Part shown: positions 1,825 through 42,716 of the stretch, piece after piece
How the letters are laid out: each line of letters starts with the position of its first letter
Numbering within the stretch: the stretch's first letter is position 1
Assembly: GCA_003152075.1 (NCBI GenBank)
Contig: PLZG01000050.1
Location: forward strand, 1 to 57,037
Direction of reading: 5' to 3'
Source: a candidate division FCPU426 bacterium
GTDB taxonomy: Bacteria; Oederibacteriota; Muellerivitia; Muellerivitales; Muellerivitaceae
DNA length: 57,037 bases
Position numbers and translations under genes: made by a program
Notes under the pieces: model-generated
What the model saw: only the letters and a program-made list of their open reading frames with translations
What the model was told of the DNA's origin: nothing
Database searches by the model: none

Positions 1825-3120
1825 ATGAAGCGACTTTTTGGTTGTGGTTTTAGGGGCAGCCTCAAAACCATCTTTTTGTCCAGTGCGGCTTTGATATTTT
1901 CAGCCACCTCTCCTGCTTTCTCGCTTAAAAACATGCTGATTTATGGGCCCACTTCTGGGTGCCATTCCGATACCGCGCCCGGTTACAACGTGACGGTTTG
2001 GAGTATCGCCCAATGGGCCGCCGCCACTACATCCCAGTTCGCCGCTTTCGATACCATTGTTTTTGAGGATTGCAACACCGGTAGCCCTTGCTTTGGCAGT
2101 GCTTCGGTTTGGGATACGGCTGTCGCTAACGAGGCGGCTTGGGTGCCCGCTGTTACGGGTAATATTTTTATCATTGGTTCAGATCCCGATTTTCACATTA
2201 ATACCTCAGGCGTGCCTGTATCCATGCTCTACCAATTCCTGGATTTTACCGCTAACGGCAGTGGCACGGGGCTTTACGTGGCCCTGAGCTGCGTCTTCGG
2301 TTCAGCTGCGGCGAATACGCCGGTTCCGCTTCTTTCGGGGTTTGGAACCTTTACGGTACAGGGGGCTACTTCCAACGCTGCCCATAAAATATCAAACCAT
2401 CCCTCGTTAAACGGAGTTACTGACGCCATCCTTTCCAATTGGAATGAATCCGTGCATGAGGGGTTTGATAGCTTTGACCCGTCATTCCAACCGCTAGCTA
2501 TCGCCACGAGCGCGGGCGTGATCAATTACACCGCGCCTGATGGAACCCAGGGCATCCCCTATATCCTGGCCCGGGGAGTTACTTTTATCCCGACTCCTTG
2601 CGGCTTGCCTGGCAACACCTGCACTCCCTTTCCCACACCTACCTCAACTCCCACCGACACCCCGACCGAAACACCCACCGTCACCCCTACTTTTACCGCG
2701 ACATTAACCCCCACGATCTCGCCCACAAACACGCCCACTAACTCACCGACTAATACATCCACCCTTTCCCCTACTGTAACCCCCACAAACTCCCCCACCC
2801 CGACTATCACTATGACTTTTACGCCTTCATGTGTCCCCAATGTTTGGCCCGATCCCTTTAATGCCCTTTACGCGGTGGGGAATGTCTTGAAGATCGGATG
2901 TGTGCCCTCTGGAGCGGCCGTCAACTTTTATACTCTTTCCGGCGAGAAGGTCAGGACGGTTTCTAACTCGGCTTTCATTTATGGAAGCCCATTCACGGCG
3001 ATTTGGGACGGAAAGAACGAAAACGGAATCCCGGTTTCCTCGGGGATCTACTTTTACGTGATCCAGAATGGCGATAAGGTCTTACAGAGGGGAAAGTTTG
3101 TCGTCATGAGTGGCAAATAG
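1825..3120 (+). CDS. Secreted protein with Thr/Pro linker and FlgD-like C-terminal domain
   Basis: The 431-residue product has a signal peptide (about residues 1-33, [15 protein letters not shown]) and an N-terminal region to about residue 262 that I do not recognise (aromatic, Ser/Thr-rich, probably beta). A Thr/Pro linker of about 70 residues follows ([15 protein letters not shown] type, about 2630-2830). The C-terminal domain (about 337-431) reads [37 protein letters not shown] and ends in a basic strand, as in FlgD Ig-like and type IX sorting domains. AAGGGA at 1813-1818 is 6 bases before the ATG. The same modular plan occurs in the next two genes, and a PorV-like gene closes the group. 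Extracellular or surface location is likely; the function of the N-terminal part is unknown. A PEP-CTERM type of sorting tail was considered but is absent. Confidence 0.85.
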
Positions 3121-3241
3121 TTAAAACGAACTAGGGCGGTCCCTTTGGGTTTTGAGAGAGTGCGTTAAGGGGAATATTCCCTGACGATACTGAAATGTCG
3201 GCTTTTTAATGGCTATTTAAGCGGATATTACAGCTCTGAGG

Positions 3242-3269
3242 TTACCTTTAAATTCTATCCTGGTATAAT
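3242..3269 (+). promoter_or_regulatory. Possible sigma70-like promoter
   Basis: TTACCT (3242-3247) and TATAAT (3264-3269) are separated by 16 bases, about 60 bases upstream of the ATG at 3331. A similar TATAAT at 1780-1785 precedes the preceding gene but lacks a convincing -35. Weak evidence from consensus match only. Confidence 0.4.
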
Positions 3270-3330
3270 TTTTCATCATCATTTTTAATCTTTTAAATTC
3301 CATCCACAGAGAAATATAAATGGTTATGTA

Positions 3331-4629
3331 ATGACTTCTCCCTTGATACCCAAACCACCAGGCCTCAAAGCCCTCTTACTTATAATTTTCGCGGCCTTCT
3401 CCCTCGGAAGCTTTGAATCCTGTTGGGCCTGGGTCAATCAAGGCTTTGAGACGGGCAATCTCACGGGATGGTTGGTGTCTTACGGCAATAGTGTACTCCC
3501 GCCTTCCACAGCAAGCGCGGTTCTTCAGGGGCCAGCTCCCAATACCAACGGTGGGCTTACCATGGTTCATAGCGGTACTTATGCGTGCCAGCTTTTCTCG
3601 AGTTCTGGGGACAGCAACCACCTGGATTTTGCCCAGATCGAGCAATCGGATATCGTGCCGCCCGCGACCCCTTGGATATCTTTTTGGTTCGCCGCAGTTT
3701 TGAGTGGGGCCCATTATAGCCAAAAACCCACACAGGCACCCTATGGTTCAGACTCTTTCGTTCTGGCGGAAATCCTGGGGCCAAGCGGGACAATTTATTC
3801 CCAGAGATATAGTTGGTACGACAACAAATCCCAGTTGGTGGATGACGGCCTTGCCAATTCCGCCGCTCCCTGGATGCACCTGCCCTGGACCCAATATTAT
3901 TTCGATTTGACCGCTTACATCGGCCAGCCGGTTACAATAGTTTACACAGCCTATGACTGCTGTTGCAGCGGCCATTATAGTTATGGTTATATAGATGACG
4001 CTCAGTGGCTCTCTACCTCCCAGGTGCCAACGAAGACCTTTACTCCCACGGACACTGCTACCAACAGTCCCACCTTAACCCCTACCCTTACCTTAACGGC
4101 TACTCTCACTCCAACCGACAGTCCCACGAACACCCCTACCGATACGCCCACTCCTTGTTATGTGAATGGAAACACTTGTACCCCCTCCAATACCTTCACC
4201 CCCACCGATACCCCCACCATCACCTACACTCCTACCATCACGTCTACGGCAACCAACAGCCCTTCCCTCACCCCAACCAACTCACCCACTTCAACCCTTA
4301 CCCCCACCTTTACTATTACCTATACTCCGACTTGCCAAACCCTGGTATGGCCCAATCCATTCAATCCGAGCTTCGCAGTAGGGAACGTCTTGAAAGTTGG
4401 CTGCGTTCCGGATGGGGCGAAGGTGACTATTTACACCCTATCGGGCGAAAAGGTCATTGATTTAAGTTCCCCCACCCGGATTTTCTCCATGGACCGTACC
4501 GAAACCTGGAACGGCCAGAACGAGAGGGGGTTGCCGGTTTCTTCCGGGATTTATTATTACGTGATCCAAAAAGATGATAAGGTTTTGTATCGGGGGAAAA
4601 TCCTCGTCGTGATAAGCGAAAAAAATTAG
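3331..4629 (+). CDS. Secreted protein: N-terminal beta domain, Thr/Pro linker, FlgD-like C-terminal domain
   Basis: The 432-residue product has a signal peptide (about 1-34, [18 protein letters not shown]). An N-terminal domain of about 195 residues begins [15 protein letters not shown] and contains paired acidic and aromatic strands ([40 protein letters not shown]). This is the pattern of galactose-binding or jellyroll modules that start with 'GFETG.l.GW'. A Thr/Pro linker spans about residues 231-335, interrupted by CYVNGNTC. The C-terminal domain ([37 protein letters not shown]) is closely related to that of the preceding gene, so the two are paralogues at this end. It is probably exported and surface-attached; carbohydrate binding is inferred from fold-like pattern only. 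No good Shine-Dalgarno site precedes the ATG. Confidence 0.82.
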
Positions 4630-4823
4630 AATAGTTTTACCCCTGCTTGAAAGCGTTCTTTTTCAAGGTATTCAAGGAAAATTAAAGTCCATTCATCACT
4701 AGTTTTCGACCAAGTTCATAAAAAATGATATATTTGATTAAAGCCTTAGGTTAAATTTAAGTCCTAATATAAAGGTTTTGTCGCTTTCACGGCTTTCACC
4801 GAGAAATCGTTTTAAGGTGATAC

Positions 4824-7331
4824 ATGTTCCACATCGAAAAAAAAATTAAATTCATCAGTTACGTTTTTATGTTTTTGTTTATTCCTGGTTTTTTGTTCGC
4901 TCAGTCCGTTTCATTCAGTAGTATTTCTGTGTCCAATGCAAACCCCGCGCCCGGTTCGGTCGTTGGGGTGACGGTTGTTTACTGCCAATTAAGCACGTTT
5001 AAAGTCCCTTATTTTTATGTAGGCCTAAATCCAAGTCAAACAACCCTTCAAGCTTGTCCCGCGGTCAATCAAACTCTTTTGGTCGATAAAAACACCTCTC
5101 CAACGGGCGTGAGCCCGGTGACTTCTTCGGCTAATGATGCCAACGATGGCGGTGGCGGCTGGGCTGGTGTGGGTTGGAACGGGACTGCTCTATGTCCAAC
5201 CACCCAAATTTGGAACGTGACTATTCCTTCCGCCATTTCTGCGGGGCCTTATAATTTAATTGTCCAGGAACATGATTATTACATCGGTTGTGACGGGGCG
5301 GCTTATCCCAATATTTCCACCGTGATCACACTCCCTTTGCCATCCGCGGCGTTTACGATAGCCAAAAGAGCGGAAGCGACCACGGCCGCGCCAAATGGCT
5401 TCATCCTCTATAGCATCGATTATTCTTTCGTGAACACGACCGGGTTCAACATTTGGGACACAGTTCCGCCAAATACGACTTTGGTTTCGGTGGGGCCCCA
5501 AAATATCGCGAGCGGGGTGACAAACGTCGGATCACCCGCGGGCAGCCCTATTACCTGGACCCCTGGCGCGGCGACCACCCAACAAACCGGAACGGTTTGG
5601 TTTTTGGTCAGCGTCAACCCCGGGACGGCTGACGGAACAATTATTAACAATACGGCTTCCGGCCAAACCAACGACGTGGGCCTGACCAATAGCAACACGG
5701 TACCGGTCACGGTTCAAATACCTAACCTTAACTTGACTAAAAGCGAGTCGGCGAATTCCTTGGCCGCGGGAAGCACTGTGACATACAACTTGGATTGGAC
5801 CGCTACCGGAAAAAATCTTCAGCTATACGATTCTTACGACAACATTGTGGCGGGGAACAGCACCAGCGGCAGCGCGGTGGCCTGGGGTTATGACGGAACG
5901 AATTACACCGTGGCACCGGCTGGGAGCCCTTCGGCCAACGGAACATGGACCGTGGAGGCCGATGCGCAAGGCAACCACTATATCCGCGCGCAGGTTGCGG
6001 CCAATTGCCCTGGAGGCCCGCCCAATCAACTTCCCGAGTTGATCCGAAGCGTTCCCGGGTTGGACATCTGCAGTGATTTCATTGTGGAAGGGGATATCGA
6101 GATTCCCCTTTCAACTTCCTGTCCGTCAGGCGCGGACGCCCATATAGTCCTGGCTTGCAACCCTTCTCAGGGGATTACCTTAAAAGCCGCGCTCTCGATT
6201 GACAACAATCCGGGTAATCTTTTCATCCAGAAAAATAATATTTACCCCCTTCCTGCAGGCGCCGCTATGGCCGTTAATTTTCCCGTTGGTTCCCCAACCA
6301 CGATCACTTTCGGTCTTTGGTACACCGTTAGTGCTGAAGTCAAATGTTCGGGGACAGGTACCATCACCTATATCGTGGCGCTTTGGCCCAAGGGCAATCC
6401 TGCCGCCGCAGTGACGCTTAATTACACGGACAATACCGCTATCCAACCCTTCTGCTCCGGGGGATGGACCCAAGGTTGGCAGGTAGACGCGACATCGGGA
6501 GAGGATTGGTACTCCAATCTGAAGATTTTCGGTCCGGGACCTATCGTGAGCGCCGCCGTGACGGACATCGTTCCGACCGGAGTTTCTTATTTGGGTAGCA
6601 GCACTGGGGCGGTTTACAACGCCGGAACTAGCACGATTTCCTGGAACTCCCCAGCCGCCTTTCCGGCCACCATGTTTTCCTTTGATACGGCAATCAATTG
6701 GTGGGGAAATGTGGCTTGCCCGGGCCCTATTAACAATAGTTTCACTATGGCCGCTTCCGGAATTCCGGTGACGACTTCCAACACGGTGAGCCTGACCTTA
6801 AGTTCCTGCATAACCCCCACCCCTACTCCGACCAATACCACGGGTCCCTCGCCCACCAATTCTCCAACTCCAAGCCCGACCAATTCACCCACATTAAGCC
6901 CAACTCAAAGCCCCACTAATACGCCTACTTTGAGCCCGACACTCACCATTACCAATACGTCAACTTTAACCCCCATTCCAACCAACACCAACACCCCCAC
7001 TATCACTTACACTCTCACTATATCACCCACTTCCAGCCCCACCCCCCCGGGGCTCCATGTTTGGCCCATTCCCTTCGATCCCAAGTACGCCTTTAAAAAT
7101 TTCTTCAAGGCCTATATGGTTCCCTCAAAATCGACCATGGACATTTATACCGTTTCGGGAGAATTAACCGTTCACCTGTCAGAGGGGAACAAAGGCACCC
7201 CAGGAGAGATTGATTGGGACGGGCACAATACTAATAATGTGATGGTTTCAACGGGGACTTACTATTACGTTATTCAAGGCAACGGTTCTACCTTATTAAA
7301 GGGGAAGGTTCTTGTCCTCATTGACCAATAA
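4824..7331 (+). CDS. Secreted DUF11-type protein with nested domain, Thr/Pro linker and FlgD-like C-terminal domain
   Basis: The 835-residue product has a signal peptide ending near FLFAQ (about residue 27). Next come an N-terminal beta domain (about 30-175), a DUF11-type repeat (from FTIAKRAE, with [15 protein letters not shown]), and a second DUF11 start (NLTKSESANSLAAGSTVTY). The second repeat is interrupted by about 230 residues resembling a concanavalin/LamG-like module (YDSYDN, VEGDIEIP, GADAHIVLA, WYSNLKIFGPGP) before it resumes with IVPTGVSYLGSS. The Thr/Pro linker covers about residues 662-743, and a FlgD-like domain (VWPIPFDPKY, IYTVSGEL, IDWDGHNTNN, YYYVIQGNG) ends the protein. AAGGTGA at 4814-4820 precedes the ATG by 3 bases. 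It is closely parallel to the giant proteins at 31.1 and 38.4 kb. Likely surface or adhesin-like; function unproven. Confidence 0.82.
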   Translation: MFHIEKKIKFISYVFMFLFIPGFLFAQSVSFSSISVSNANPAPGSVVGVTVVYCQLSTFKVPYFYVGLNPSQTTLQACPAVNQTLLVDKNTSPTGVSPVTSSANDANDGGGGWAGVGWNGTALCPTTQIWNVTIPSAISAGPYNLIVQEHDYYIGCDGAAYPNISTVITLPLPSAAFTIAKRAEATTAAPNGFILYSIDYSFVNTTGFNIWDTVPPNTTLVSVGPQNIASGVTNVGSPAGSPITWTPGAATTQQTGTVWFLVSVNPGTADGTIINNTASGQTNDVGLTNSNTVPVTVQIPNLNLTKSESANSLAAGSTVTYNLDWTATGKNLQLYDSYDNIVAGNSTSGSAVAWGYDGTNYTVAPAGSPSANGTWTVEADAQGNHYIRAQVAANCPGGPPNQLPELIRSVPGLDICSDFIVEGDIEIPLSTSCPSGADAHIVLACNPSQGITLKAALSIDNNPGNLFIQKNNIYPLPAGAAMAVNFPVGSPTTITFGLWYTVSAEVKCSGTGTITYIVALWPKGNPAAAVTLNYTDNTAIQPFCSGGWTQGWQVDATSGEDWYSNLKIFGPGPIVSAAVTDIVPTGVSYLGSSTGAVYNAGTSTISWNSPAAFPATMFSFDTAINWWGNVACPGPINNSFTMAASGIPVTTSNTVSLTLSSCITPTPTPTNTTGPSPTNSPTPSPTNSPTLSPTQSPTNTPTLSPTLTITNTSTLTPIPTNTNTPTITYTLTISPTSSPTPPGLHVWPIPFDPKYAFKNFFKAYMVPSKSTMDIYTVSGELTVHLSEGNKGTPGEIDWDGHNTNNVMVSTGTYYYVIQGNGSTLLKGKVLVLIDQ

Positions 7332-7453
7332 ATCCGCCTATTTTTCGTATAATCAATGCAGAATGAAGGTTGGGAGTTTTTGAGGTAAGGTAATATAATA
7401 TTTTGCGGTTGAAATTGATTTGGACCCTATCCCGAAAGAAAAGCCAAATTAAT

Positions 7454-9670
7454 ATGAAAAGAAATATATTGAAAAACCTTTTATCGCCCTCCATTTCCAT
7501 TATCCCCAAGACCCTCATCGCTTTATTTCTTCTCGTCCCATTACCCCTTTTGGCCCAAGTGAACGGTGCCGGAAGCACCAGTACCAACTTCCAAAAAATC
7601 GGTATGGGAGCACGCGCGTCCGCTATGGGGGAAGCTTTCTCGGCAGTTTCCGACGACGCGACAGCGGTTTTTTGGAACCCCGCCGGCCTTATCATGGCCA
7701 AGGGGACACAGTTCAACCTGACCCACGCCGAATGGCTCCAGGGAGTTACCAACGAGTTTTTCGCCTTTAGCCAGAACATTGAATCTGACGGGGCGTTTGG
7801 GGGAAGCTTAGGTTATTTAGGGACGGGATCATTTCCCGGGGCTTTGGAAACCCCTTCGGGAACCTATGGCGGGGTGGGAGACAACATCAGCGCCTCCAGC
7901 TATATCGGAAGCCTGGCTTACGCGCAAAGGCTTGGCAACTGGATCAACGGCGATTTTTTCAAGCACACCATGATGGGTATTAAAGCTACCGTGGTGGGCC
8001 AGAACGTAGTGAACGTGGGAAGCGCGGGTTTGGCCTTTGACGCCGGGCTTATGTATGAAGTAACCCGAAAAACTTTCTACCTTTCCGCTTTGGCCAGCAA
8101 TATCGGAACCCAATTCCAGGGCACAGTTATTTCAGCGGCGGGCGTGACGGCCACCCAGAACTACAGCCAGCCCATGATGTTCAAGGTCGGCGGGGCCTAC
8201 CATCTTCATAACCTTCTCATGAAAAGGGACCGCGACATCATCGCCCTGGAAACCGACGCCCAAATCGACACGGGGGTAAAATTCAACATTGGGGACGAGT
8301 ACCGGCTGGTGTTCGGCCGAAACGCCGTGGCCCTGAGGGTAGGTTACCGCACGGGCGGCGATCTGGGAACCTTGGCGGGTTTAACCAGCGGCGTCGGGAT
8401 TTCCCACCGGTTCGACGACTTTGAGGCGGGGTTGGACTACGCCTTCGTTCCCTACGGGGTTTTGGGTGACACGCACCGGATTTCGGTCAATGTGGTTATA
8501 GGGGGGCCTTTAATTCCGCCGGAAGCCTACGTTACCGCTTCCCCCGCATTTATTTTGGGCCAGCAAAGTTTGAAAGTTAATTTCGCCACCAAGAGCGAAG
8601 AACCCATTGACCACTACAAAATATCCATCCTCGATCCCTCGGGCATGCTGGTGAAGACTTTTGAAGGCAAGGGAAACCCGCCCTCCAATTATTTGTGGGA
8701 TGGCCGCAATCAGACGGGGTCGCTGGTGCCGCAAGGCAACTACACCATTAATCTGGAAGTCACGAACGACGAGGAACTGTCGGCCAAGGCCCGGCCGCGT
8801 GAGGCATTCGCCAAATGGGTTCCGAAGCGGGTTCCTTACCAATACACCTTCGGGGTTTCGGGCGATCTTTTGTTCGACTCAGGCAAGGACGAGCTGCTGA
8901 AGAAGGGTTACGACGCCATTCAAAAGACTGCCGACGCCATTCAACGTAAATATCCGGACAGCATGATCATCATCGCCGGTCACACAGACGATCAGCACCT
9001 CGCCAAGGGCGCTAAGTTCGCGGACAATAAAGCCCTCTCGCTGGCTCGGTCCCAGGCGGTCATGAATTATCTCGTGAAAAACGGGGTGAATCCCAACAAG
9101 CTAAGCGTCATTGGGTATGGGGAAACTAAGCCCATCGCCGATAATAAAACTCCGATTGGCCGGGCGAAGAACCGCCGGGTGGAGTTGGTTGTCTCAGGGG
9201 TCATGGACGCCTCCTCGAACGACTTGATCGCAGAGGGCCAAAGCATGATGAAGGAAAAGAGAACCCGTGAAGCGCTGGAAAGGTTCCTCAAGGCGGTCGA
9301 GGCCGATACCCGTAACCCAAGGGCTTATAAATTGGCGGGGGATTGTTACCTGTTGTTAGGCGGGAAAGACCAAGCTGCCGCCGCTTATCGGAAATCCCTG
9401 GAGTGGAATCCCCAAGACAGTAACTTGCGGAATTGGTTAAACACCTACGCTCCTTCAGCTCAACCTGCTCCATTATCACCCTTGCCCTCCCTGCCAGTGC
9501 CCGGCGCCGGCGCGCCCGCTCCAGCTCCCCAATCGAATACCGCCGCGCCAGCCCTGGCCGCTCCTGTCGCGGCGGCTCCAGTGGCCACGACTGTTCCTGT
9601 TACCGCTGCTCCCCCGGTGGCCGCTCCCGCTGCCCCCTCGGGCATGCCCCAGCCGGTCGAAGGCCAATAA
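7454..9670 (+). CDS. PorV/PorQ-like outer-membrane barrel fused to FlgD-like, OmpA and TPR domains
   Basis: The 738-residue product begins with a signal peptide (to about 35, LLVPLPLLAQ). Residues about 40-355 match the PorV/PorQ (UPF0164) pattern: FQKIGMGARASAMGEAFSAVSDDATAVFWNPAGL, given here in outline, then many amphipathic strands. A FlgD-like Ig module follows at about 373-440 (ILDPSGMLVKTF, YLWDGRNQTG), then an OmpA-like peptidoglycan-binding domain at about 465-582 (LFDSGKDEL, IAGHTDD, LARSQAVMNYL, GYGETKPIADN, NRRVEL). A TPR pair (about 608-662) and a Pro/Ala tail complete it. An in-frame TTG exists at 7403, but the ATG at 7454 starts a clean signal peptide. In type IX secretion PorV shuttles cargo carrying C-terminal signals, and this gene directly follows three such candidate cargo genes. 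The exact role is inferred. Confidence 0.85.
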   Translation: MKRNILKNLLSPSISIIPKTLIALFLLVPLPLLAQVNGAGSTSTNFQKIGMGARASAMGEAFSAVSDDATAVFWNPAGLIMAKGTQFNLTHAEWLQGVTNEFFAFSQNIESDGAFGGSLGYLGTGSFPGALETPSGTYGGVGDNISASSYIGSLAYAQRLGNWINGDFFKHTMMGIKATVVGQNVVNVGSAGLAFDAGLMYEVTRKTFYLSALASNIGTQFQGTVISAAGVTATQNYSQPMMFKVGGAYHLHNLLMKRDRDIIALETDAQIDTGVKFNIGDEYRLVFGRNAVALRVGYRTGGDLGTLAGLTSGVGISHRFDDFEAGLDYAFVPYGVLGDTHRISVNVVIGGPLIPPEAYVTASPAFILGQQSLKVNFATKSEEPIDHYKISILDPSGMLVKTFEGKGNPPSNYLWDGRNQTGSLVPQGNYTINLEVTNDEELSAKARPREAFAKWVPKRVPYQYTFGVSGDLLFDSGKDELLKKGYDAIQKTADAIQRKYPDSMIIIAGHTDDQHLAKGAKFADNKALSLARSQAVMNYLVKNGVNPNKLSVIGYGETKPIADNKTPIGRAKNRRVELVVSGVMDASSNDLIAEGQSMMKEKRTREALERFLKAVEADTRNPRAYKLAGDCYLLLGGKDQAAAAYRKSLEWNPQDSNLRNWLNTYAPSAQPAPLSPLPSLPVPGAGAPAPAPQSNTAAPALAAPVAAAPVATTVPVTAAPPVAAPAAPSGMPQPVEGQ

Positions 9671-10304: not shown

Positions 10305-12431
10305 TTATTTTCTTGAGGGTGGAAGGTTTCGCAAATTCTCGGCGGCGTCGGTGAGGTTGAGCCTCAAGCGCAAGGCTTCTTCAAAAGCCTTTCGGGCCGC
10401 GGGCAGTTTATTTTCCTGATACAACAAACAACCCAGGTCATTGTAAAGATGGGCCATGGGCAGGCCCTTTTCGATACCTTGTTTCTCGTCTTCAATCGCC
10501 TCGTCCATTTTTCCCTCCGCCGCGTGGTGAATGGCCCTGATACGCCAATAACGGGCTTCCAATAGGGGATCACCCTTGAAAGAGGGATAGGCTTTGTCCA
10601 AAACAGCCAACATCCGGCTTTGGTCCGGGTCCACGTTGAACTCCATGACCAACCGTGTCAATTCCTTAAGCGATAGGTCCGCCTTTGCCCAACGGCTTAA
10701 AAGGGGTTTGTTGAATTGGCTCACCGGGACGATCTCAAGGATAAGACCGCCATCCCGCTTGTTCAAACCCTCCGAGAGCCAGAACCACTTTCCCTCCGGG
10801 AAAACTTTCTTGAAATAGGGTTCCTCGTGGATATTGGCCAGGACGCCGGTCCATTTCGCCCGGGTTGGATCCAGTTTCGGGTTTTCGGCCGCGTTGAAAG
10901 AATAACTCGCCACAAAAATGGTTTGGTCGTAGGGGTCAGGGTTGAAGTTAAGAAGAATCAAGCCTGGGCCCTGTTGATTGGCGAGGGGTTTCAACAGGGA
11001 ATAGGCCTTGTTAAATTCCGGCGACCGGGCCTTGTCAAAGTAGGAAGGGTTTCTTTCAAAATCCCTTGGGTAGACATAAACCAAATGGAATAGATCCAGG
11101 CAGGTTGAAGCCGTTAATACCACGAGAAAAACCAAGAGCCGCCCCTTGAGGGGGACGGGGTCCAGGAGAGTTTGGGCCCCCAGAGCGCAGATGAGCAAAA
11201 GTAGGGGGATCATGGGGGTCAGCCTCATGATTTCAAAGTCGTTGGTCAGGACCGTCGGGAGAAAGAGGACGAAAAAGGCCGTGAGGATCCATAGGCTCAA
11301 GGGTTCCCAATAACGCCGGAAAAGGCGGATCAAACCGAAAAAGAACAGGGAAGTCAGGAGGGGATTCAAAAATCCACCCCATAGGGGGCCGTAGTGGAAA
11401 AAATTAACGGGGGCGCCCCAAAAAAAATCCTTCAAACAGACGAGGGGCAGGCTGAACCTGTCCAGGAAGGGATGGGGAGCGCCGAAGGCCCAGAGATGAT
11501 TGATATATCCGTGGTATTCCCTGATGTAAGCGATCACCAAGGGAAGGATAACAAGGGAAACTCCTGCCAGGAATTTCAGGGCATCCTTCAGGCGCCCGCC
11601 CAGGGATTGGTTCCGGTTGCCGATAACCGTCAGACCAATCAATAAAGCAACGAAGGGCCACGCCAAATAGGTATAGAACCCAGTTCCCGTCAAAATAGCC
11701 AGCGCGTAAATCCAAGGATTTTTCCGGGAATTTTTCGATTCATCCAAGTAACCGCCCAAGGCGAACAACGCAAGGCATTCCCATAACACCAAAAGGATTT
11801 GTTGCATGGAAAACCAGCCTAGGTAAAGGGGCCAAAAACTGAAAACCATTAGGGAAAGCAGGAGGAAGGTCGTGCCGCGGGATAAGACTTTTCGGCTGGC
11901 CAGCCAGAGTGCCGGCACGCAGGTGAATGAACATAAGGCGGGGAAAAACCAAAAGGTCGTCAGGGAGTGGCCGAATAGTTTGAAAAAAAGGTAAAGCCCC
12001 CAGGAATAGAGCATGGGTTCCTGAGCCACAGAGTGCAGAATCTGCCAATCCCATTTTTCCTCCAGCAGGGTCGCGAAATAACCAAAGAGGCCCTCGTCCG
12101 AAAAGGGCCAGGGAGATAGGGTGAACAGGTGGTAAAAACGCAAAATAGCGCCCAAAAGCAGAAGGGTCATCCACATCCAGGAAGGGATCCGAGGAAAGGG
12201 TTCTTGCTTGTGAGTGGCCACTTTTTCCTCGAGGGAAAAGACCAGTGCCCCCGGGAGCAAAAAGCCGAAAAGGACAATCCACATTTTATAAATGAGGGAA
12301 GGGTGACCGTAAGAAAGAATAGCGTTGGAGACCGTTAGAGCGATAAAACATGTTCCCATGAGAAGAGGAGCGTTTTTCTTCAACGTAATTCCAACCGGGG
12401 ACGAGAGAATGGTTTTTGGTTTATTCGCCAA
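10305..12431 (-). CDS. GT39-like membrane glycosyltransferase (GT-C) with TPR tail, copy 1
   Basis: The 708-residue integral membrane protein has about 11-13 hydrophobic segments and a GT-C hallmark acidic pair in the first periplasmic loop (WPFSDEGLFGYFA, Asp112-Glu113). This resembles ArnT/PMT/GT39-type enzymes that move sugar from a lipid carrier on the outer face of the inner membrane. A soluble C-terminal part contains a globular region (about 480-600) and TPR-like helices (AIHHAAEGKMDEAIEDEKQGIEKG, LYNDLGCLLYQENKLPAARKAFEEAL, in two parts). The start is a TTG at 12429-12431. Its Shine-Dalgarno GAGGA lies inside the last codons of the upstream paralogue, with only 2 bases between the genes, which indicates translational coupling. 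Acceptor and sugar are unknown; protein or lipid A glycosylation are both possible. Confidence 0.8.
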   Translation of the reverse strand: MANKPKTILSSPVGITLKKNAPLLMGTCFIALTVSNAILSYGHPSLIYKMWIVLFGFLLPGALVFSLEEKVATHKQEPFPRIPSWMWMTLLLLGAILRFYHLFTLSPWPFSDEGLFGYFATLLEEKWDWQILHSVAQEPMLYSWGLYLFFKLFGHSLTTFWFFPALCSFTCVPALWLASRKVLSRGTTFLLLSLMVFSFWPLYLGWFSMQQILLVLWECLALFALGGYLDESKNSRKNPWIYALAILTGTGFYTYLAWPFVALLIGLTVIGNRNQSLGGRLKDALKFLAGVSLVILPLVIAYIREYHGYINHLWAFGAPHPFLDRFSLPLVCLKDFFWGAPVNFFHYGPLWGGFLNPLLTSLFFFGLIRLFRRYWEPLSLWILTAFFVLFLPTVLTNDFEIMRLTPMIPLLLLICALGAQTLLDPVPLKGRLLVFLVVLTASTCLDLFHLVYVYPRDFERNPSYFDKARSPEFNKAYSLLKPLANQQGPGLILLNFNPDPYDQTIFVASYSFNAAENPKLDPTRAKWTGVLANIHEEPYFKKVFPEGKWFWLSEGLNKRDGGLILEIVPVSQFNKPLLSRWAKADLSLKELTRLVMEFNVDPDQSRMLAVLDKAYPSFKGDPLLEARYWRIRAIHHAAEGKMDEAIEDEKQGIEKGLPMAHLYNDLGCLLYQENKLPAARKAFEEALRLRLNLTDAAENLRNLPPSRK

Positions 12432-12433
12432 GT

Positions 12434-14572: not shown

Positions 14573-14736
14573 AGGAAGTGTTTTGTGAATTATAACGGTG
14601 TTCCCTGACCGCAACGACGGTAAATCCGTTTTTGCGGGCCTTTTTCGATGTTTTCCCTTGTCGATTGGGATTCATTCCGGGGAATATTGAGGAGTTGGGG
14701 ACTCGTTTTAAATTTTCCTTGAGGACGCTACGAGTT

Positions 14737-14761: not shown

Positions 14762-14854
14762 ATAACAGGCCGCACGAAGGATTTTTAATAGTTTTTTGGC
14801 GGCCTGCTAGTTAGCATAGGGTTCATTCAGGTGGTAAAAGAAACGGGGATTTTA

Positions 14855-15313: not shown

Positions 15314-15318
15314 GTTTT

Positions 15319-15446: not shown

Positions 15447-15477
15447 TCAATCCTGATGGTTCCTTTAAAATAACTAA

Positions 15478-30929: not shown

Positions 30930-31140
30930 GGATTTTCTACCATCCTCGATTTGTCAGTAATCCTCCCTAGTTAGTCATAAATCGAACTTAAACTTCCTTA
31001 AACTCTTCCGAGAAATTTCAGGAAAAGCCTTTTTTTATAGGTTTTTTTAACCGTTTAAAGGCTCGGAAATTGCAATTTAAATGATAAAATTGTTTTGTTT
31101 AGTGGTTTCCTGAAGATTCTTTAACTCTCTGGGGGTGCTC

Positions 31141-34100
31141 ATGCACCGATTTCTCAGGGAAAAGAACCCCTCCTTTCTGAAAAAAGGCCCCACAAAAGTT
31201 CTTTCTCTCTTTTTTTACAATAAACTTGTCCGGTGTTTGGGAATGGCCTGCGGGCTTTTTCTTTTCGCTTCTTTTGGTTACGCTCAACAACAGTTCAACG
31301 GCGTATTTCTGAGCGATTATAACCCCCAGGTAGGGGAAACAGTCGCGGTGACGGTGAACTGGTGCGATTACACCATGTTCAACACGCCCTTCTTTCTTGG
31401 GGCTTTGAGCGAATCCACCACCCTTCAAAACTGCCCTGCTACTTTCCAAAATTATTTTGCCGATGCCAATGGCGTTACTAATATCAACGATACTGGGTTT
31501 AGCGGAGCCATCAACGGTTTTCAATACCCGACAGCCAGCGCCGCCGGAGTCACTGATTGCGCGGGTACCGGCAACCGCCAAGTCGTCTGGTATTTAACCA
31601 TCCCCGCCTCCCTGTATGGCCCCTATCCAGGCAACCAAGTGCTTCCGGGCGACGTTTTTTATGTCGATATCGGCGCAAAGCGCGATTCATTAAGCTGCGC
31701 CAGCGATTCAGGGATCACCCAAATATCCATTCCCATCACCATTTTCACCGGAACACCCCGCTTCACGCTTTTAAAGACCGCCGAGGACAATTCCGCGGCC
31801 CCGAATGACCTGATCCTCTACAAAGTCAACTACACTTTCACTAACACGAACAATTTCACCATCACCGATACCGTGCCGGCCAATACCACCCTGGTTTCGG
31901 TGGGGCCTCCCGGAGTGGCTAGTGGGGCGGTATCGGGGGCAGTGGCAGGTAGCGGTATCACTTGGACATTGGGAAGCACGGTTTCGCAAAAAGTCGGCCA
32001 GGTTTGGATGCTGGTAAGGGTGAACGCGGGGACGTCAGCCGGAACCAATATTCCCAATGCCGCGGTGGGACAAAGCACCGAAGTGGCAGCCACCAACAGC
32101 AACACGGCCACTTCCACAGTGGGGGGCGGCGGACAGATAGTAAAAAGCGAAAACGTTCCCAGCGCCTCCTCAGGACAAGTGGTGACCTACAGCTTGGCAT
32201 GGAACATCAGCGGGGAAAGCCTGCAACTTTATGATTCCTACGACAATAACACGGTAGGAACGGCCGATAGTTCCATCACTGGTTTTGATGGAACGGGTTA
32301 TACCGCCTCCGCCTCGGGGTTTACTATCGTCGCGGGGTCCGACGGGAACAATTACATCCAAGCGACCATCGCGTCAGGCTTCCCAACCCTTTTGCGGAAC
32401 AGTCCTCCCGTAAGCTTGTGCAGTAACTACATGGTGGAAGGGGACATGATGATTCCCGCCAGCGCCAGCGTTGGCTCAGATGCCCACATGGTCATTGCCT
32501 TGAATACGACCACCTGTGACAACTACATGGTGGCTATTTCCAAAGACACCAATCCCGCCAATTTTTTCCTCCAGAAAAAGGTAGGCTGTGGCGGGGGAGG
32601 ACCCTCTTATCCGGCCGCGCTTAATAATGGAAACGCGGCTTTGCAGGGAGTGAGTATTGTTGAAAACCAGTGGTATACGATTAAAACGCTGGTGACCCAA
32701 TCGGGAGCCAATCTCATCATCAGCTCAAAGGTTTGGGTTCGGGGCACACCCGAACCGGCGAGTTGGACTTTCACTTACACCGACACCTCGCCCTTGCCTT
32801 GCACCCCGGGTGGGGGTGGCCAGTATCAAATCGGCTGGCAGGGGGATTCGACGGCGGCACAGGACGCCTATAGTAATCTGAGACTTTTCACGGCCGATCC
32901 CGCCACCAATACCCTTATTTATGACACGGTTCCCACAAACTTGACCTATGGTGGATCGGACAATGGCGGAGCTTTAAGCGCCGGACAAGTGCAATGGAGT
33001 TTACCCGGCACCATTTTTCAAGCCAACGGGACTTACAATTGGTGGGCCACGGTGGGGGGCAGTTGCGCCCCGATTACGAACATTGCATCCTTGCACACTG
33101 CCCAGATGCTTTCGGGGGCCATTAATTCAAACGCGGTGACCCTCAGTATTAGCGGCTGTTCCACGGCCACCAACACCCCCACGAACAGCCCCACTAACAC
33201 GCCTACCAAGACCCCAACGAACAGCCCCACGAATAGCCCCACCAACAGTCCCACCAATAGCCCGACCAACAGCCCAACTAATTCGCCCACCAACACCCCC
33301 ACAATCAGCCCGACTAGCAGCCCTACCAATTCACCGACCAACACCCCAACGAATACGCCCACTAAAACACCCACTAATTCCCCCACCAACACCCCCACCG
33401 TCACCCCCACCGTCACCCCAACCAATAGCCCTACCAATACGCCGACCAATACCCCTACCCGCACACCGACCGTTACCCCGACGAATACCCCCACCAATAC
33501 CCCGACCAATACGTTCGTTAACACGCCGACCAATACCCCTACCAATAGCCCCACGAATACGCCGACCAACACGACCACGATCACGCCCACCAATAGCCCC
33601 ACCAACAGCCCGACCCGTACTCCCACCAACAGTCCCACGAATACCCCGACGATCACCCCGACGAACAGCCCCACGAATACGCCCACGATCACGCCAACGA
33701 ATTCACCCACGAACAGCCCCACCAATACCCCCACGCTTACCTTTACGGTGAGCCCAACCAATTCGCCAACCAACAGTCCTACCAATACCTTTATTAACAC
33801 GCCAACGTTAACCCCGACTAACACCCCAACGAACAGTGCCACCCAGACACCGACTAGCACTCCAAGTAATACGCCCCCCAACACACCCACTCCCACATGG
33901 ACTGTAAGCCCCACCAATTCACCAACTAACAGCCCGACTAATACCCCGACCAATAGTCCTACCCAGTCCCCGACCAACAGCCCCACCAATACACCCACCA
34001 GCAGCCCTACACCCACGCAGACCATGAGTCCCACCAACACCCCCACCAACACCCCCACCAATAGCCCAACCTGGACCTCGACCGTTACTCCGACGACTAC

Positions 34101-36417
34101 CCCTACCAACACTCCGACTAATACTTTTATCAACACACCGACGTTAAGCCCGACCAACACCCCGACGAATAGCCCTACCCCATCCCCAACCAATACGCCT
34201 ACCAACAGTCCTACTGCTACGCTGACCATTTCCCCCACCAATAGTCCAACCAATATCCCTACGGCCACGCCAACGGTAACCCCCACCAATACCCTCACCA
34301 ACACGCCGACGGATACATTTGTTAACACACCGACGTTAAGCCCCACCAGTACCCCGACCAATAGTGCCACTGAAACAACCACTAACACTTCCAGCACCAC
34401 GCCCACCAACAGTCCTACTCTTACATTGACCGTGAGCCCCACCAATTCGCCAACCAACAGCCCGACCAATACTTCCACGAACAGTCCCACTCAGACTCCG
34501 ACGAATACCCCAACGGACACATTCGTCAACACGCCCACGAATAGTCCCACGGATACCCCCACGAACAGCGCCACGACCACCCCTTCCGACACTCCCATTA
34601 ACACGCTTACTGACACACCCACGCCCACGTTAACCATGAGCCCCGCCAACAGCCCTACCAACACAAGTACACCAACGCCAACCAACAGCGCTACTGTTAC
34701 CCCAACGGACACTCCAACCCCTACTCCCACGTACACCCCCACCCTGACATTTTCGATCTCGCCCACGAACAGCCCGACAAGCACTCCGACCCCTAGCTCC
34801 ACCAACAGCTTCACCAACACGGCTACCCTTACTCCCTCTAATACGGCTACCGTTACGCCTACCCAAACACCCACCAACACTTTCACGAACACGGCCACGA
34901 ATACCCAAACCAAAACCTTCACCAATACGGCCACCAACAGCCCCACGCCCACCCTCACCAATACCGCCACCAACAGTCCCACCCCTACCCTCACCAACAC
35001 GGCCACCAACTCACCCACCAAGACTCCGACCCACACCGCCACCAACAGCCCGACCAATACCAATACCCCAACCTCCACTCCTACCCTCACTTTCACGCCC
35101 ACTCCCACGCCCTACCTGACATTGATCAAGACTTCCTCCGAATACTCGGCCAAGGCCGGGGACATCGTCACTTACACCCTGACTTATTCCAACCCTACTT
35201 CCTCCCCCGTTACCAACGCGGTGGTAACGGACAACCTGCCCCCCTCCGAGGCGGTGAGCTATTTGCCCGGTTCAGCCAGCGGCGGGGGAACTTACAACAG
35301 TGCGGCCAACACGCTCTCTTGGACCATCCCTTCCGTCCCGCCGGGAACGAGCGTTCAGTTAACCTACCAACTCCAGGTGTTGGTATTGGCAGGGGCCTAT
35401 AACCCCATCACTAATAAAGCCCAGATGACCTACGAGGGAGGGGCTGTCACCGCCACCAACGCCATTTCCGTGACAGGGAATTACACAATAAGGGTTAGCG
35501 TCTATAACAGCGTTGGGGAGGTGATCAAGACCTTGAAGGTTTTTGAGACTTCAGGGGCGATTTCCAGCTTTGATATGGGGGGCAACCCCATTACCTCCAA
35601 CCAGGGAGCGGTGATCATCTTCTATAACGGGATGCCCGTCGTAGTCTGGGACGCCACCAATTCAAGTGGCAAAAAGGTCAGCAATGGGACATACCTGATC
35701 AAGATCGACAGCATCGACAACTTTGGAGACGTTAGTTCGGTGACCCAAAACGTTGCGGTGGCGATCGTAGAAAACCAACTGGAGATAGCGGTATTCAACA
35801 GCGCGGGGGAGATTGTGAAGCATTTCACCCAGCAGGATATCCAGAATTTACTGGCCGCGACGGGAGGATTGCAATCAAAGGATTTTGAGGTTGGGTTGGT
35901 CAAGCTCTCGGCGGGCGTTTTTGCTCCTTCCTATTCCACTACCTCCAACGGTTATGTGTTGATCACGCTGGGGTCGGGCCAAAACGTGACTTGGGACGGC
36001 AGGAACGACTCTGGGGCGATTGTCACCAGCGGGACCTACTTTATCGAGATCAAGGCCACGATCCAGGGCCAGACTTCACAGGAATTGACACAGACAGTGA
36101 AGGTGGTGAACGACGGGCAAAAGCCGCTTTCGGGGATCGTGCTGGCTCCCAATCCCATCAGCCTGAGGTTATATAACCAAGCTCAATTTCTCCTGAACGG
36201 GTTAAGCCCTGAGGTATCGGCTACGCAAGTGAAGATTTACACGGTGGCGGGAGAACTGATTAAAACTCTTACCAACGACCCCGGAATGCCGGGCACCATC
36301 ACCTGGGATTTGAGCGGGGGATTGGCCAGCGGCACCTACATCGCGGTGGTGGAGATGGTCGGTCCCGGGGGAAGACTCATCGGTAGGCAAATTCTCAAAG
36401 TCGCTGTCTTTCATTGA
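31141..36417 (+). CDS. Giant secreted DUF11/FlgD-type surface protein with a 650-residue Thr/Pro linker
   Basis: The 1758-residue product has a long signal region (to about 42, FASFGYAQ). It then shows an N-terminal beta domain, a DUF11-type repeat ([34 protein letters not shown]), and a second DUF11 start interrupted by about 220 residues (YDSYDNN to [11 protein letters not shown]). The Thr/Pro/Asn/Ser linker covers about residues 675-1323. A third DUF11 repeat follows ([21 protein letters not shown]), then three FlgD-like units ([24 protein letters not shown] with [23 protein letters not shown]) ending in [12 protein letters not shown] at 31135 is in frame, but the GGGGGTG overlapping it serves the ATG at 31141 at a normal distance. 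Likely a long fibrous surface or adhesion protein; function is unproven. Confidence 0.82.
33163..35112 (+). repeat. Coding Thr/Pro/Asn/Ser tandem linker, about 1.95 kb
   Basis: Short degenerate units encoding [18 protein letters not shown] and similar are repeated about 100 times. Codons for the same residues vary constantly (acc/acg/act/aca, ccc/ccg/cca/cct), so DNA identity between units is limited. The sense strand is strongly C-rich and G-poor. The antisense strand is open over long stretches because of this composition, not because of a gene. Confidence 0.95.
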
Positions 36418-38408: not shown

Positions 38409-41400
38409 ATGAAATTTTACCAAATCTTTATTAGAGCTTTTCCTCTGGTTAGAGTGGCCCTTTGGGCCCTTATCCCTTTAGGTATGGTAACGCTTTCAGC
38501 GAACGCCCAGACTTGCAGCACGAACTCTTCTGCCGTCTCAAACCTTTGCGTCACCGTTTCTCCGACCAATCCCATTCCCGGTTCTTCCGTCACGGTTACC
38601 GCCAATTATTGCAGCACGGTGAACGGGGGAAGCGGAACGGAGTTCGATGTCCTATTGAACAGCAATGCCACCACGATCCAGGCCTGCCCCACCTCTGGGC
38701 AGATATTCTTGGTGGACGCGGCGGGACAAAACCGAAACGACCTGGACCCCTGCGCTGCGGCGGGACAAGGCCCGGGCTGTGATATTGGCTGGTATGACGG
38801 CCTCTTAAATCCGGGGGCGACTTGCACCAACCATTCGGTGACTTGGGTTCTCGCCATTCCGAATAATGTGGCAGTGGGAGGGGTCTATAACGTGATTGTG
38901 GCCGCAGGAGGCTACGGCAGTTTAAGATGCGGTTCAGCTGTGTTGAACTCAGCCTCCATCCCCGTCACAATCCCCCTGCCCCCGCCCAATATTTACAATA
39001 TCTCCAAGGCCGTGGAAGAAAACGGAACATCGGTCAATCCAGGAGACCTTTTGTTGTTCAAGATCGATTACACCTTCGTTAACACAAATAACCTCATCAT
39101 TACCGACGCTGTCCCGCCCAATACCACCCTTGTGGAAACCGGGCCTGTTTCGATTGAAAGCGGGGCGGTTTCGGGTTCGGGCCCCGGAAGCCCCGTGACC
39201 TGGTCTCCTGGAAGTGCCACAACCGCCATTTCGGGCGAGGTGTGGATGCTGGTGCGGGTAAATTCGGGGGCCTCGGCGCCGGTTTCGGGAACGGTTATTT
39301 CCAACACGGCGACGCTTTCCTCGGCCCAAATATCCGCTACCACAACTAATACGGCCTCCGTGAACGTAGGGCCAGGTTTTCAGATTACGAAAAGCGAACT
39401 TTCCGCGTCGATCCTACCCGGGCAAAACATCACCTATACCCTCAATTACAATCATAACGGCCAGAGTCTTCTTTTTTACGATTCCTACGACAACGACGTG
39501 GTGGGCACGGCTGGCAACAGTATCCAGAGTTATGACGGCACCGGTTACACCATGGGCAACGCCAGCGCCACATTTGGTGTCGCCTCGGACTCACAGAACA
39601 ACCATTACATCGTGGCCAACGCCTGCCCTGCCTCCGCCCAAGGGGTTACCTGCACTAACTTCACCGCGCTTTTGAGGAACAGTCCTCCTGTTAGCCTTTG
39701 CAGCAATTTCACCGTGGAAGGGGATGTCTATATCCCCGCCGGTGACCCGTCAGGAGCCGACGCCCATATGGTGATCGCGGCTAATCCTTCCGCTGGCGGG
39801 GTGGGGGATTCCTACATGCTTGGCATATCCCTGGACAATTATCCCGGCAACTTTTTTCTTCAAAAAAACATATCGGCTACCGCGTCGGTTACCAATCCAG
39901 TGACGATGCTCAACAATTCCATTGGCACGACGATCACCGCTGGAATTTGGTACACATTGAAGTCTCAAGTGACCTACGTCGGGGGAAACCTGACGATCTG
40001 CGGTAAGGTTTGGCCCAAGGGCTCCGCTGAGCCCGCCGCGAACGCTTTTTGTTACCTTGACCCCAGCCCCCTGCCTTGCACGCCCGCAGGCGGTGGAAAG
40101 TACCAGGTTGGGTGGCAGGCTGACGGGTCGGCCAACATGGATTATTACTCGAACCTCAAGTTGTTCGGCCCGGACCCGGCTATCAACACGGTTATTTGGG
40201 ACACCCTTCCCACCGGTGTTTCCTATGTGGGAAATAGCACCGCCGGAGCGGGGGCCGCAACGGTTAATTTCGTCCTGGGACCGCCTCTCAGTTGGAGTTT
40301 CCCGGGGACAATCCTCAATGGCCCGTCCGGTGTTGTCACCTGGTGGGGCTCGGTTAGTTGCGGATCCTCAGGGTTAATCATTAACAGCGCGGATCTCCAG
40401 GCCAGCGGGGTAAGCGCAGTCTATTCCAAAGCGGTCACCGCGACTGTGGCGACCTGTACTTTCACCCCCACCGCGACCAATACCCCTACCAACACTCCTA
40501 CCATTACACCGACTAATAGCCCGACCAACAGCCCCACCCGAACCCCAACCAATACACCTACCAATACACCGACAATAACCCCCACCAATACGCCCACCAA
40601 CACCCTCACCATTACCCCCACCAATAGCCCGACTAACAGTCCGACTGTTACGCCAACGAAAAGTCCCACCAATAGCCCAACCAACACCCCAACTATTACG
40701 CCAACCCTCACGCCCACCAACACGCGCACTCCAACGCCGACCAACACCTTTATCAATACGCCGACCCCCACCAACACTCCCACACTAACTCCCACGAATA
40801 CTCCCACAAACACCGCCACCCATACGCCAACGAACACCCCGACCGCCACCAATACTCCTACCAATACACCCACAAACACTCCAACCGTTACCCCTACGGA
40901 TACCCCCACCAATAGCCCCACGAACACCTTCACGGCCACCAATACCCCGACGAACACTCCCACACCGACTCCAACCGACACTCCCACAAATACTTTTACT
41001 CCAACCGATACTTTTACTCCAACTCCAACCGATACCCCAACCGATACCTTTACGCCTACCCTCACCAATACTCCAACCTTCACTCCAACGCCCACCGATA
41101 CTCCCACCAACACAAATACCTTTACCCCCACGGATACTCCAACTTATACCTTTACACCTACCGACACTTTTACCCCGACAGATACCCCAACCCCCACTTT
41201 CACTTTTACGCCTACCGACACACCCACTTGGACTTTCACCTTTACCCCAACCTTTACCCCCACACCTACCTATACCTTCACACCGACGCCAACCTGGACA
41301 TTCACCTTTACCCCGACTAACACCCCCACTGCCACCAACAGTCCCACGAATAGCCCGACCCACACGCCCACAAATACACCAACCCTTACCCCGACCCATA

Positions 41401-42716
41401 CCCCAACATCCACGCCAACCAACACTCCAACCGCTACCCCTACGCCGCCCGCGGTCATTGGAATTCAAAAGCAAGCCTCCGTGGCCAACGCCTCTTCCGG
41501 TGACACGGTGACTTACGACATCACCCTCAATGTCACCGGGACCACAGCGCAAAGTGTGGTAGTGAACGACACACTTCCAGCCAACGTCACTTTCAATGGT
41601 TTCGGGGTCGAGCCGGCGGGGACCACCCAACAGCAAAATGGATCACTTCTGACCTGGAATCTTCCGCCTTTGCCGGTTGGGACCTATAGTCTTTTTTATA
41701 CCGTGAAGGTTAACAATTTCGTCCAGGCTGGGACCCTTTTGGAAAACCAGGCCTGGGCCAGCAACCCGGGGAGTGCCCCCGTCACGGCTAAAGCCGACGT
41801 GACTGTGATAGGGGATTACACCATCAAAATTGGGGTATATAACGAGGCAGGTGAATTGGTAAAGATCATCAAAATCATGCACCTGTCCCAACCCGTAAAC
41901 AACATCCAATTGGTATCCAACGTCATCACCAGCCTCAACGGGGACAACCACGAGGTCGACATTTATTACCTGGGACTTTTAATAGGGGCTTGGGACGGAA
42001 GCAATGCCAATGGCGACCCGGTCACTAATGGGAAATACCACATCAAGGTGGATAGCAGCGACAATTATGGGGTGGTGACCAGCGTCACCCAACAGGTCAT
42101 GGTGAGCCGGGTTTTATTCAAGTCCACTATCAACATTTATAACCAGGCCGGGGAGATCGTCAGACACCTTTACGCCTACGCGGATGATCCAGGCAAGACC
42201 AATGTCACCAGCGTCCGGTTGTCCTCAAGTACTATTGATCCAAGTTACGTCCCGGGAGGGGTACTTTCCCATTTATCAGTGATCCTGAGCAACGGGACAA
42301 TCGCCATTTGGGACGGAAAAAATGACAACGGAAATTTGGTGACCAACGGCCACTATTTCGTTGAGGTACATACGGTGGATGGGCAGGGAGGCGAGACGGT
42401 GGTTACGGAAGAGGTGACGGTTTTCGCGGTGGGGTCTGATGGTGTTGGGACGGTCATGGCCCAACCTAATGTACTTAAGGGAGTGACCCAAACCACCTTT
42501 ACTTCTGACTCGGTCCTGGGATTAATCCTCCAGGTGAGGCTCTATTCCATAGCCGGGGAAAAGGTGAGTTATAACCTTGAAAATAGTGGAATCAATCAAA
42601 CTACAATCGATGTCTCGGGACTTGCCAGCGGCCTTTACCTAGCGGTGGTGGATGCAATTGATTCACATGGCTGGAAGATAGGCCAAAAAATCGTCAAACT
42701 TGCGATTGTTCACTAA
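38409..42716 (+). CDS. Giant secreted DUF11/FlgD-type surface protein with a 330-residue Thr/Pro linker
   Basis: The 1435-residue product has the same plan as the 31.1-kb gene. A signal peptide ends at SANAQ (about 34), followed by an N-terminal beta domain, a DUF11-type repeat ([35 protein letters not shown]), and a second DUF11 start split by about 230 residues ([45 protein letters not shown]) before [13 protein letters not shown]. The linker spans about residues 683-1014 and includes [11 protein letters not shown] variants. A third DUF11 repeat ([20 protein letters not shown]) and three FlgD-like units follow ([24 protein letters not shown] with [20 protein letters not shown]), ending IVKLAIVH. 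A promoter is not clear. Probably a surface fibre or adhesin. Confidence 0.82.
40458..41450 (+). repeat. Coding Thr/Pro tandem linker, about 1 kb
   Basis: Degenerate units encoding [12 protein letters not shown] and, in the second half, FTPTDT and WTFTFTPT occupy about 331 codons. The two halves differ in composition (Asn/Ser-rich, then Asp/Phe-rich), suggesting separate rounds of expansion. Codon choice varies between units. Confidence 0.93.

What the first reader, a model, noticed from the sequence alone, without database searches (positions are those of the whole stretch)
1825..9670. Type IX-like surface-display cluster: three FlgD-tailed cargo candidates followed by a PorV-like gene
Seen: three consecutive secreted proteins share a Thr/Pro linker and a conserved C-terminal FlgD-like domain ending (SG)IY(F/Y)YVIQ..(K)(V)L.(R)GK, and the next gene is a PorV/PorQ-like barrel. 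Known: in type IX secretion, PorV escorts proteins bearing C-terminal sorting domains to the surface. Inference: these three, plus the giant proteins at 31.1 and 38.4 kb, are cargo of a related system outside Bacteroidota. No PorU, SprA, GldK-N or signal peptidase gene is in the window, so the core machine must be elsewhere if it exists.
Basis: partly seen in the sequence, partly recalled or inferred. Interest (0 to 1): 0.7.

Follow-up and report, generated by a model that had tools for sequence, protein, structure and literature searches.

The report
Type 9-like secretion outside Bacteroidota
This uncultured bacterium (candidate phylum FCPU426) carries the outer-membrane gate, the carrier proteins and about a hundred tagged cargo proteins of a type 9-like secretion system, a machine thought confined to Bacteroidota and relatives, but the usual motor and sorting enzyme were not detected, so the core of the machine may be older than, or separable from, its motor.

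Summary
Three consecutive secreted proteins (1825-7331) end in type-A-like sorting domains (CTDs). The next gene (7403-9670) is a PorV-family barrel (NF033709, 121.8 bits, cut-off 90) fused to FlgD_ig, OmpA and TPR domains. The giants at 31.1 and 38.4 kb also end in CTDs.

The inference holds for the translocon. A 1988-aa SprA lies elsewhere in the genome (TIGR04189, 203.3 bits, cut-off 200), and SprA was found in 40 of 45 genomes of the phylum (fragments in 3 more). The genome has about 25 PorV-family genes and about 97 CTD cargo proteins; 86 of 100 CTD matches end within 5 residues of the C-terminus. By profile the CTDs are nearest to PorZ and PorU CTDs, ahead of FlgD. PorV and CTD genes are linked to each other and, in other phyla, to SprA.

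The inference fails for the rest of the machine as far as tested. GldM and GldN were not detected in 45 genomes; PorU-type C25 peptidase was absent here and present in only 4 of 45. GldK and GldL were not searched, and no positive-control genome was available.

Verdict: a T9SS-like SprA-PorV-CTD system outside the FCB phyla, with expanded, tail-fused carriers and an unidentified energy source; not a canonical T9SS.

The parts
1825..3120 (+). Cargo 1, 431 aa: N-terminal signal-like segment, passenger, Thr/Pro linker (aa 283-335), type-A-like CTD
2839..3108 (+). CTD of cargo 1 (ends 3 aa before the C-terminus)
3331..4629 (+). Cargo 2, 432 aa: signal-like segment, passenger, Thr/Pro linker (aa 284-334), CTD passing TIGR04183
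4342..4611 (+). CTD of cargo 2; AlphaFold model with mean pLDDT 85; nearest PDB folds PorU and PorZ CTDs
4824..7331 (+). Cargo 3, 835 aa: passenger paralogous to the giants at 31.1 and 38.4 kb, linker (aa 675-742), CTD of the YVIQ..GK class
7056..7319 (+). CTD of cargo 3 (ends 3 aa before the C-terminus)
7403..9670 (+). PorV-family carrier fused to periplasmic-type domains, 755 aa (likely start ATG 7454)
7577..8494 (+). PorV beta-barrel domain (best fold match: F. johnsoniae PorV 8gl6_F / 6h3i_F)
8567..8770 (+). FlgD_ig-like domain directly after the barrel (internal, not a sorting CTD)
8870..9175 (+). OmpA-type peptidoglycan-binding domain
9248..9430 (+). TPR domain
31135..36417 (+). Giant cargo, 1760 aa: same passenger family as cargo 3, very long T/P linker, FlgD_ig repeats, terminal CTD of another class
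36142..36414 (+). CTD of the giant cargo (exactly at the C-terminus)
38409..42716 (+). Second giant cargo, 1435 aa, same architecture
42456..42713 (+). CTD of the second giant cargo (exactly at the C-terminus)

Best explanation
The locus is a cargo-carrier cassette of a T9SS-like outer-membrane export pathway. Proposed mechanism: (1) the three proteins cross the inner membrane by Sec (inferred); (2) the folded C-terminal Ig-like CTD enters the SprA barrel encoded at G000:C39:25307-31273 and is caught by the loops of a PorV-family barrel docked at SprA's lateral gate (inferred by homology to F. johnsoniae SprA-PorV-substrate structures, PMC10994853); (3) the carrier-cargo complex leaves sideways and the cargo is displayed on a Thr/Pro stalk. 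Because no C25 sortase gene was found, the CTD probably stays on the carrier, as type B substrates do in Bacteroidota (inference). The carrier's OmpA and TPR tail, expected in the periplasm, would anchor it to the cell wall (inference). Shown by sequence: SprA, about 25 PorV-family genes, about 97 C-terminal CTDs, and their linkage. Not shown: transport itself, CTD-carrier pairing, and the energy source for the release step.
For: SprA: TIGR04189 203.3 bits over cut-off 200, E 4.4e-60; profile of 21 homologues hits PDB 6h3i SprA, E 1.2e-47; C-terminal Phe invariant in 21; in 40 of 45 genomes of the phylum, C-terminal fragments in 3 more. PorV; profile hits 6h3i_F PorV, E 6e-43; Foldseek top hits 8gl6_F and 6h3i_F. 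CTD: 100 proteins, 86 within 5 aa and 97 within 20 aa of the C-terminus; PDB profile order PorZ 3.4e-8, PorU 3.8e-8, then FlgD 6.8e-7, with translocon-bound CTD 8glk_D at 5e-5; 39 of 56 CTDs hit TIGR04183 and 39 hit the PorZ model, against 26 for the commonest FlgD model; fold hits PorU and PorZ; the near-C-terminal Lys stressed in PMC10994853 is K in 70% and R in 14%, and the pattern is in 84 of 97 cargo against 39 of 403 other ORFs. Linkage: 9 of 25 PorV genes have a same-strand CTD gene within 200 bp, rough p 4e-6; SprA-CTD-PorV contiguous in L107, and PorV/CTD genes within 10 kb of SprA in Elusimicrobia, Firestonebacteria and Aerophobetes records.
Against: GldM and GldN not detected in 45 genomes and no C25 peptidase here, although energy is needed to extract substrate in the characterised system (PMC10994853). 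No experiment is known to me in this phylum. SprA similarity to Bacteroidota SprA is low (only about 3 bits above the family cut-off; no single-sequence PDB hit). Many CTDs match FlgD-type models too. 16 of 25 carriers have no CTD gene within 200 bp on the same strand.
Confidence: 0.8

Rival explanations
1. A complete canonical T9SS is present, with GldK-N and sortase components too divergent for the Bacteroidota-trained profiles to detect.
For: The SprA model itself only just passes its cut-off here, so smaller components could fall below detection. No positive-control genome with GldM or GldN could be searched. GldK and GldL were not searched. Sub-threshold GldM hits occur in G009 and G010.
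Against: SprA and PorV are found with models of the same origin (PorV in this genome; SprA in nearly every genome), while GldM and GldN give nothing significant in 45 genomes. C25 is detectable by the same pipeline in 4 relatives but not here. None of the 25 carriers has the Cys-X-Cys tail that couples SprF to GldK (PMC12635249).
Confidence: 0.3
2. The C-terminal domains are ordinary FlgD_ig/Ig-like structural domains of surface proteins exported by another route, and SprA serves something else.
For: FlgD_ig is among the best Pfam hits for several proteins, and 26 of 56 CTDs hit one FlgD model. Internal FlgD_ig repeats occur in the giants and in the carrier.
Against: 97 of 100 matches end within 20 aa of the C-terminus. 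PorZ and PorU CTDs outrank FlgD in profile and fold searches. The near-terminal Lys is conserved. The genes are linked to PorV and to SprA.
Confidence: 0.08
3. A decayed or recently transferred T9SS fragment without function.
For: Missing motor and sortase profiles.
Against: SprA is full-length and conserved in most of the phylum. Its LptF/G and ComF neighbours are shared with Elusimicrobia, which suggests old vertical inheritance. The cargo set is large, with several CTD sub-classes.
Confidence: 0.03

Closest known systems
Type IX secretion system (SprA/Sov translocon, PorV carrier, type A CTD, TIGR04183) of Flavobacterium johnsoniae and Porphyromonas gingivalis
   Same: SprA-family translocon, PorV-family carrier, Sec-type N-termini, C-terminal Ig-like CTD with conserved near-terminal Lys, many cargo proteins
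   Different: GldM and GldN not detected in 45 genomes; no C25/PorU sortase in this genome; about 25 PorV-family genes instead of one general type A carrier; carriers fused to OmpA, TPR or Fn3 tails; SprA carries an Fn3-like segment near its N-terminus
Type B (SprF/PorP) carrier-substrate pairs of Bacteroidota
   Same: Carrier gene directly downstream of its cargo genes, suggesting dedicated carriers and lasting anchoring (PMC12618676, PMC9143113)
   Different: Carrier is PorV-family, not PorP/SprF; CTDs are type-A-like (1 of 56 gives a weak type B hit); no Cys-X-Cys tail for track coupling
PorE (TPR, WD40/TolB-like, CPE and OmpA lipoprotein of T9SS)
   Same: OmpA peptidoglycan-binding and TPR modules associated with a T9SS component (PMC12204202)
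   Different: Here these modules are fused to the PorV barrel itself; no WD40 domain found
FlgD hook-cap Ig domain (PF13860)
   Same: Related Ig-like fold and detectable sequence similarity
   Different: C-terminal in about 97 proteins, with sorting-type Lys and closer PorU/PorZ similarity

Membership tests
Type IX secretion system | SprA/Sov translocon | tested here: met
   TIGR04189 203.3 bits, cut-off 200; profile to 6h3i E 1.2e-47; 40 of 45 genomes
Type IX secretion system | PorV-family carrier barrel | tested here: met
   NF033709 121.8 bits, cut-off 90; genome census; fold match 8gl6_F. Cut-offs of the PorQ and PorV2 equivalog models are not reached
Type IX secretion system | C-terminal type A sorting domain on many secreted proteins | tested here: met
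   only one of the three window cargo passes the TIGR04183 cut-off as a whole protein
Type IX secretion system | Sec signal peptide on cargo | tested here: inconclusive
   hydrophobic N-termini by simple heuristic and by eye; no dedicated predictor available
Type IX secretion system | GldLM motor and GldKN ring (energy chain) | tested here: not met
   GldM 0 of 45 significant, GldN 0 of 45; no positive control, GldK and GldL not searched
Type IX secretion system | PorU-type C25 sortase | tested here: not met
   none in this genome; 4 of 45 genomes of the phylum have a C25 peptidase
Type IX secretion system | PorW/SprE, PPI, Skp, PorQ, PorZ, PorP accessory proteins | not tested
Type IX secretion system | SprA-dependent secretion of CTD proteins | not testable with these tools
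   needs experiment
Type B SprF-type carrier | Cys-X-Cys periplasmic tail coupling the carrier to GldK | tested here: not met
   0 of 25 PorV-family proteins
FlgD hook-cap protein | C-terminal domains more similar to FlgD than to T9SS CTDs | tested here: not met
   PorZ and PorU rank above FlgD by profile and fold

The most novel reading that the evidence does not exclude
A SprA-PorV-CTD export core that works without the GldKLMN motor and without PorU, inherited vertically in FCPU426/Goldiibacteriota/Firestonebacteria and Elusimicrobiota, in which many dedicated PorV carriers with OmpA or TPR tails fix cargo to the cell wall. It would be either the ancestral state from which the gliding-powered T9SS arose or a lineage with a different energiser.
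Probability: 0.4. Interest if true: 0.85.

Novelty: new variant of a known kind. Interest (0 to 1): 0.72.

Why it matters
[quoted passage not shown] A conserved SprA, PorV and CTD set in FCPU426 and Elusimicrobiota, sitting in a shared LptFG-SprA-ComF neighbourhood, challenges the distribution claim and makes the origin claim testable. The undetected motor asks directly what extracts cargo from SprA. About a hundred proteins of an uncultured phylum also gain a predicted surface location.

Tried and rejected
Single-sequence SprA searches of the PDB and of genome contigs found nothing; alignments of the family were needed. The SprA_N Pfam model failed on the same ORF that TIGR04189 recognises. 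PF01364 and TIGR03523 gave no hit in the own genome and no control genome rang; TIGR03517 gave none and only two sub-cut-off control hits, so absence is reported as 'not detected'. Neighbourhood clustering around SprA showed no motor candidate among the families examined; it recovered LptF/G, ComF, PorV and CTD proteins. A LytTR regulator and a histidine kinase lie upstream of SprA in this family; their architecture does not match PorX/PorY as I recall it, and they were not pursued. Fn3-only hits to the SprA alignment in G012 and G026 were not counted as SprA. Coupling of CTD sub-class to carrier sub-family was seen but not tested statistically. Literature searches for this system in these phyla returned nothing relevant; the library lacks most subscription papers.
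Full report
OBSERVATION. Cargo 1-3 (1825-3120, 3331-4629, 4824-7331) have hydrophobic N-termini, Thr/Pro/Ser linkers and a shared domain ending 3-5 residues before the stop. The fourth ORF passes the NCBIfam PorV/PorQ family and continues past the barrel into FlgD_ig, OmpA and TPR domains. AlphaFold (mean pLDDT 75, pTM 0.50) gives a barrel followed by these domains; Foldseek's best matches are the PorV chains 8gl6_F and 6h3i_F, with FadL-type barrels and OmpA-type peptidoglycan-binding domains next. The giant proteins at 31.1 and 38.4 kb also end in a CTD at their last residue.

TRANSLOCON. TIGR04189 matches six co-linear segments of one 1988-aa ORF at G000:C39:25307-31273, minus strand. As a whole protein it scores 203.3 bits against a cut-off of 200. 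A profile of 21 homologues recognises the solved F. johnsoniae SprA at E 1.2e-47. The last residue is an invariant Phe in all 21, as expected of an outer-membrane barrel (established knowledge). SprA is found in 40 of 45 genomes of the phylum; the SprA profile finds C-terminal fragments in three of the other five. Immediately downstream in this genome is a 1557-aa Fn3 protein that itself ends in a CTD. This pairing recurs in several other families of the phylum.

TAXONOMY AND SPREAD. Named relatives place the organism with candidate division FCPU426; the same phylum in this collection holds Goldiibacteriota and Firestonebacteria. A scan with the SprA alignment returned 257 relatives, the best 80 including many Elusimicrobia and records labelled Aerophobetes, Sumerlaeota and Coatesbacteria (record labels of MAGs can be wrong). 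LptF/G and ComF genes flank SprA in both FCPU426-phylum and Elusimicrobia records, which suggests old vertical inheritance (inference).

CARGO. A CTD profile from 19 sequences gives 111 matches in this genome. On retrieved ORFs, 100 proteins carry the domain: 86 end within 5 residues and 97 within 20 residues of the C-terminus, and the PorV fusion itself is one of the three exceptions. The profile included CTDs of this genome chosen because they were terminal, so there is some circularity; but an earlier profile of six sequences, all from this genome, also found terminal domains in other phyla. Against the PDB the order is PorZ, PorU, FlgD, then CTDs trapped in the SprA-PorV translocon. The single-domain fold model (pLDDT 85) has PorU and PorZ as best matches, at modest significance (E 0.002-0.004). 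The near-terminal Lys that contacts PorV in the F. johnsoniae structures (PMC10994853) is K in 70% and R in 14% here. The CTDs fall into at least seven sub-classes by their last 30 residues. Cargo 3 shares its passenger with both giants (38% identity to one over about 700 residues; the giants share 45%) but has a different CTD class, so passenger and CTD behave as separable modules.

CARRIERS. About 25 PorV-family genes occur. Nine have a same-strand CTD gene within 200 bp, against about 1.3 expected if the genome has about 3600 genes (assumed), p about 4e-6. In other records PorV, CTD and SprA genes sit together, for example SprA-CTD-PorV in L107. Tails differ: OmpA (window, L163, L165, L177), TPR (window, L166, L168, L169, L171, L178) and Fn3 (L162, L164). 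None has the Cys-X-Cys motif that ties SprF to the GldK track in F. johnsoniae (PMC12635249).

WHAT IS MISSING. GldM (0 of 45 significant; two hits at E 0.01-0.06) and GldN (0 of 45; two hits at E 0.05 and 0.28) were not detected. C25 peptidases occur in 4 of 45 genomes, not in this one, which also shows that the search can find that family. I therefore say 'not detected', not 'absent'.

MECHANISM. In F. johnsoniae the CTD binds PorV inside SprA without energy, and the motor is needed to pull the carrier-cargo complex out (PMC10994853). By homology the loading step is the part best supported here. The release step is open: a divergent GldKLMN, another transducer, or pull by the carriers' periplasmic tails. 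Since no C25 sortase gene was found, lasting anchoring on a wall-bound carrier, resembling type B pairs (PMC12618676), is my preferred fate for the cargo; this is inference.

MEMBERSHIP AND NOVELTY. Three defining T9SS parts are met; the energy chain (GldM, GldN) and the sortase were tested and not met. I therefore do not file it as a canonical T9SS, but as a T9SS-like variant that probably works the same way at the outer membrane. One paper states that T9SS genes are absent outside FCB phyla (PMC11285876) and one survey found T9SS only in Bacteroidetes (PMC4793230). No description in these phyla was found in the held library; subscription papers are mostly not covered.

Noticed in passing
G000:C39:20524-25197 (L030:5525-10198, minus strand): A 1557-aa Fn3-repeat protein with a terminal CTD follows SprA; related Fn3-CTD proteins sit next to SprA in several families of the phylum, perhaps a dedicated SprA partner or first substrate.
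   Followed up: partly
L083-L160 and L030: SprA is flanked by LptF/LptG and a ComF-family phosphoribosyltransferase in both the FCPU426 phylum and Elusimicrobia, a deep conserved neighbourhood whose meaning is unclear.
   Followed up: partly
window 4824-7331, 31135-36417, 38409-42716: Three paralogous passengers (38-45% identity) carry two different CTD classes and linkers from 68 to over 170 residues, suggesting exchange of CTD modules.
   Followed up: partly
L166, L168, L171, L172, L173, L176: Small (206-316 aa) proteins with an atypical terminal domain (PG.Y.I.V.SG) sit within about 3.5 kb of PorV-TPR fusions; possible separate carrier-cargo class.
   Followed up: no
G016, G043, G044, G013 (L211-L214): C25 peptidases occur in four relatives only; whether they are PorU-like sortases or cargo was not examined.
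   Followed up: no
window 22929-27686: 1585-aa NHL-repeat protein with a lipobox-like N-terminus and T/P linkers but no CTD, possibly a surface lipoprotein outside the CTD pathway.
   Followed up: no
window 10305-22771: A run of large membrane proteins (by sequence look, glycosyltransferase, O-antigen ligase and YfhO-like) follows the cassette; a link to surface polysaccharide anchoring of cargo is possible but untested.
   Followed up: no
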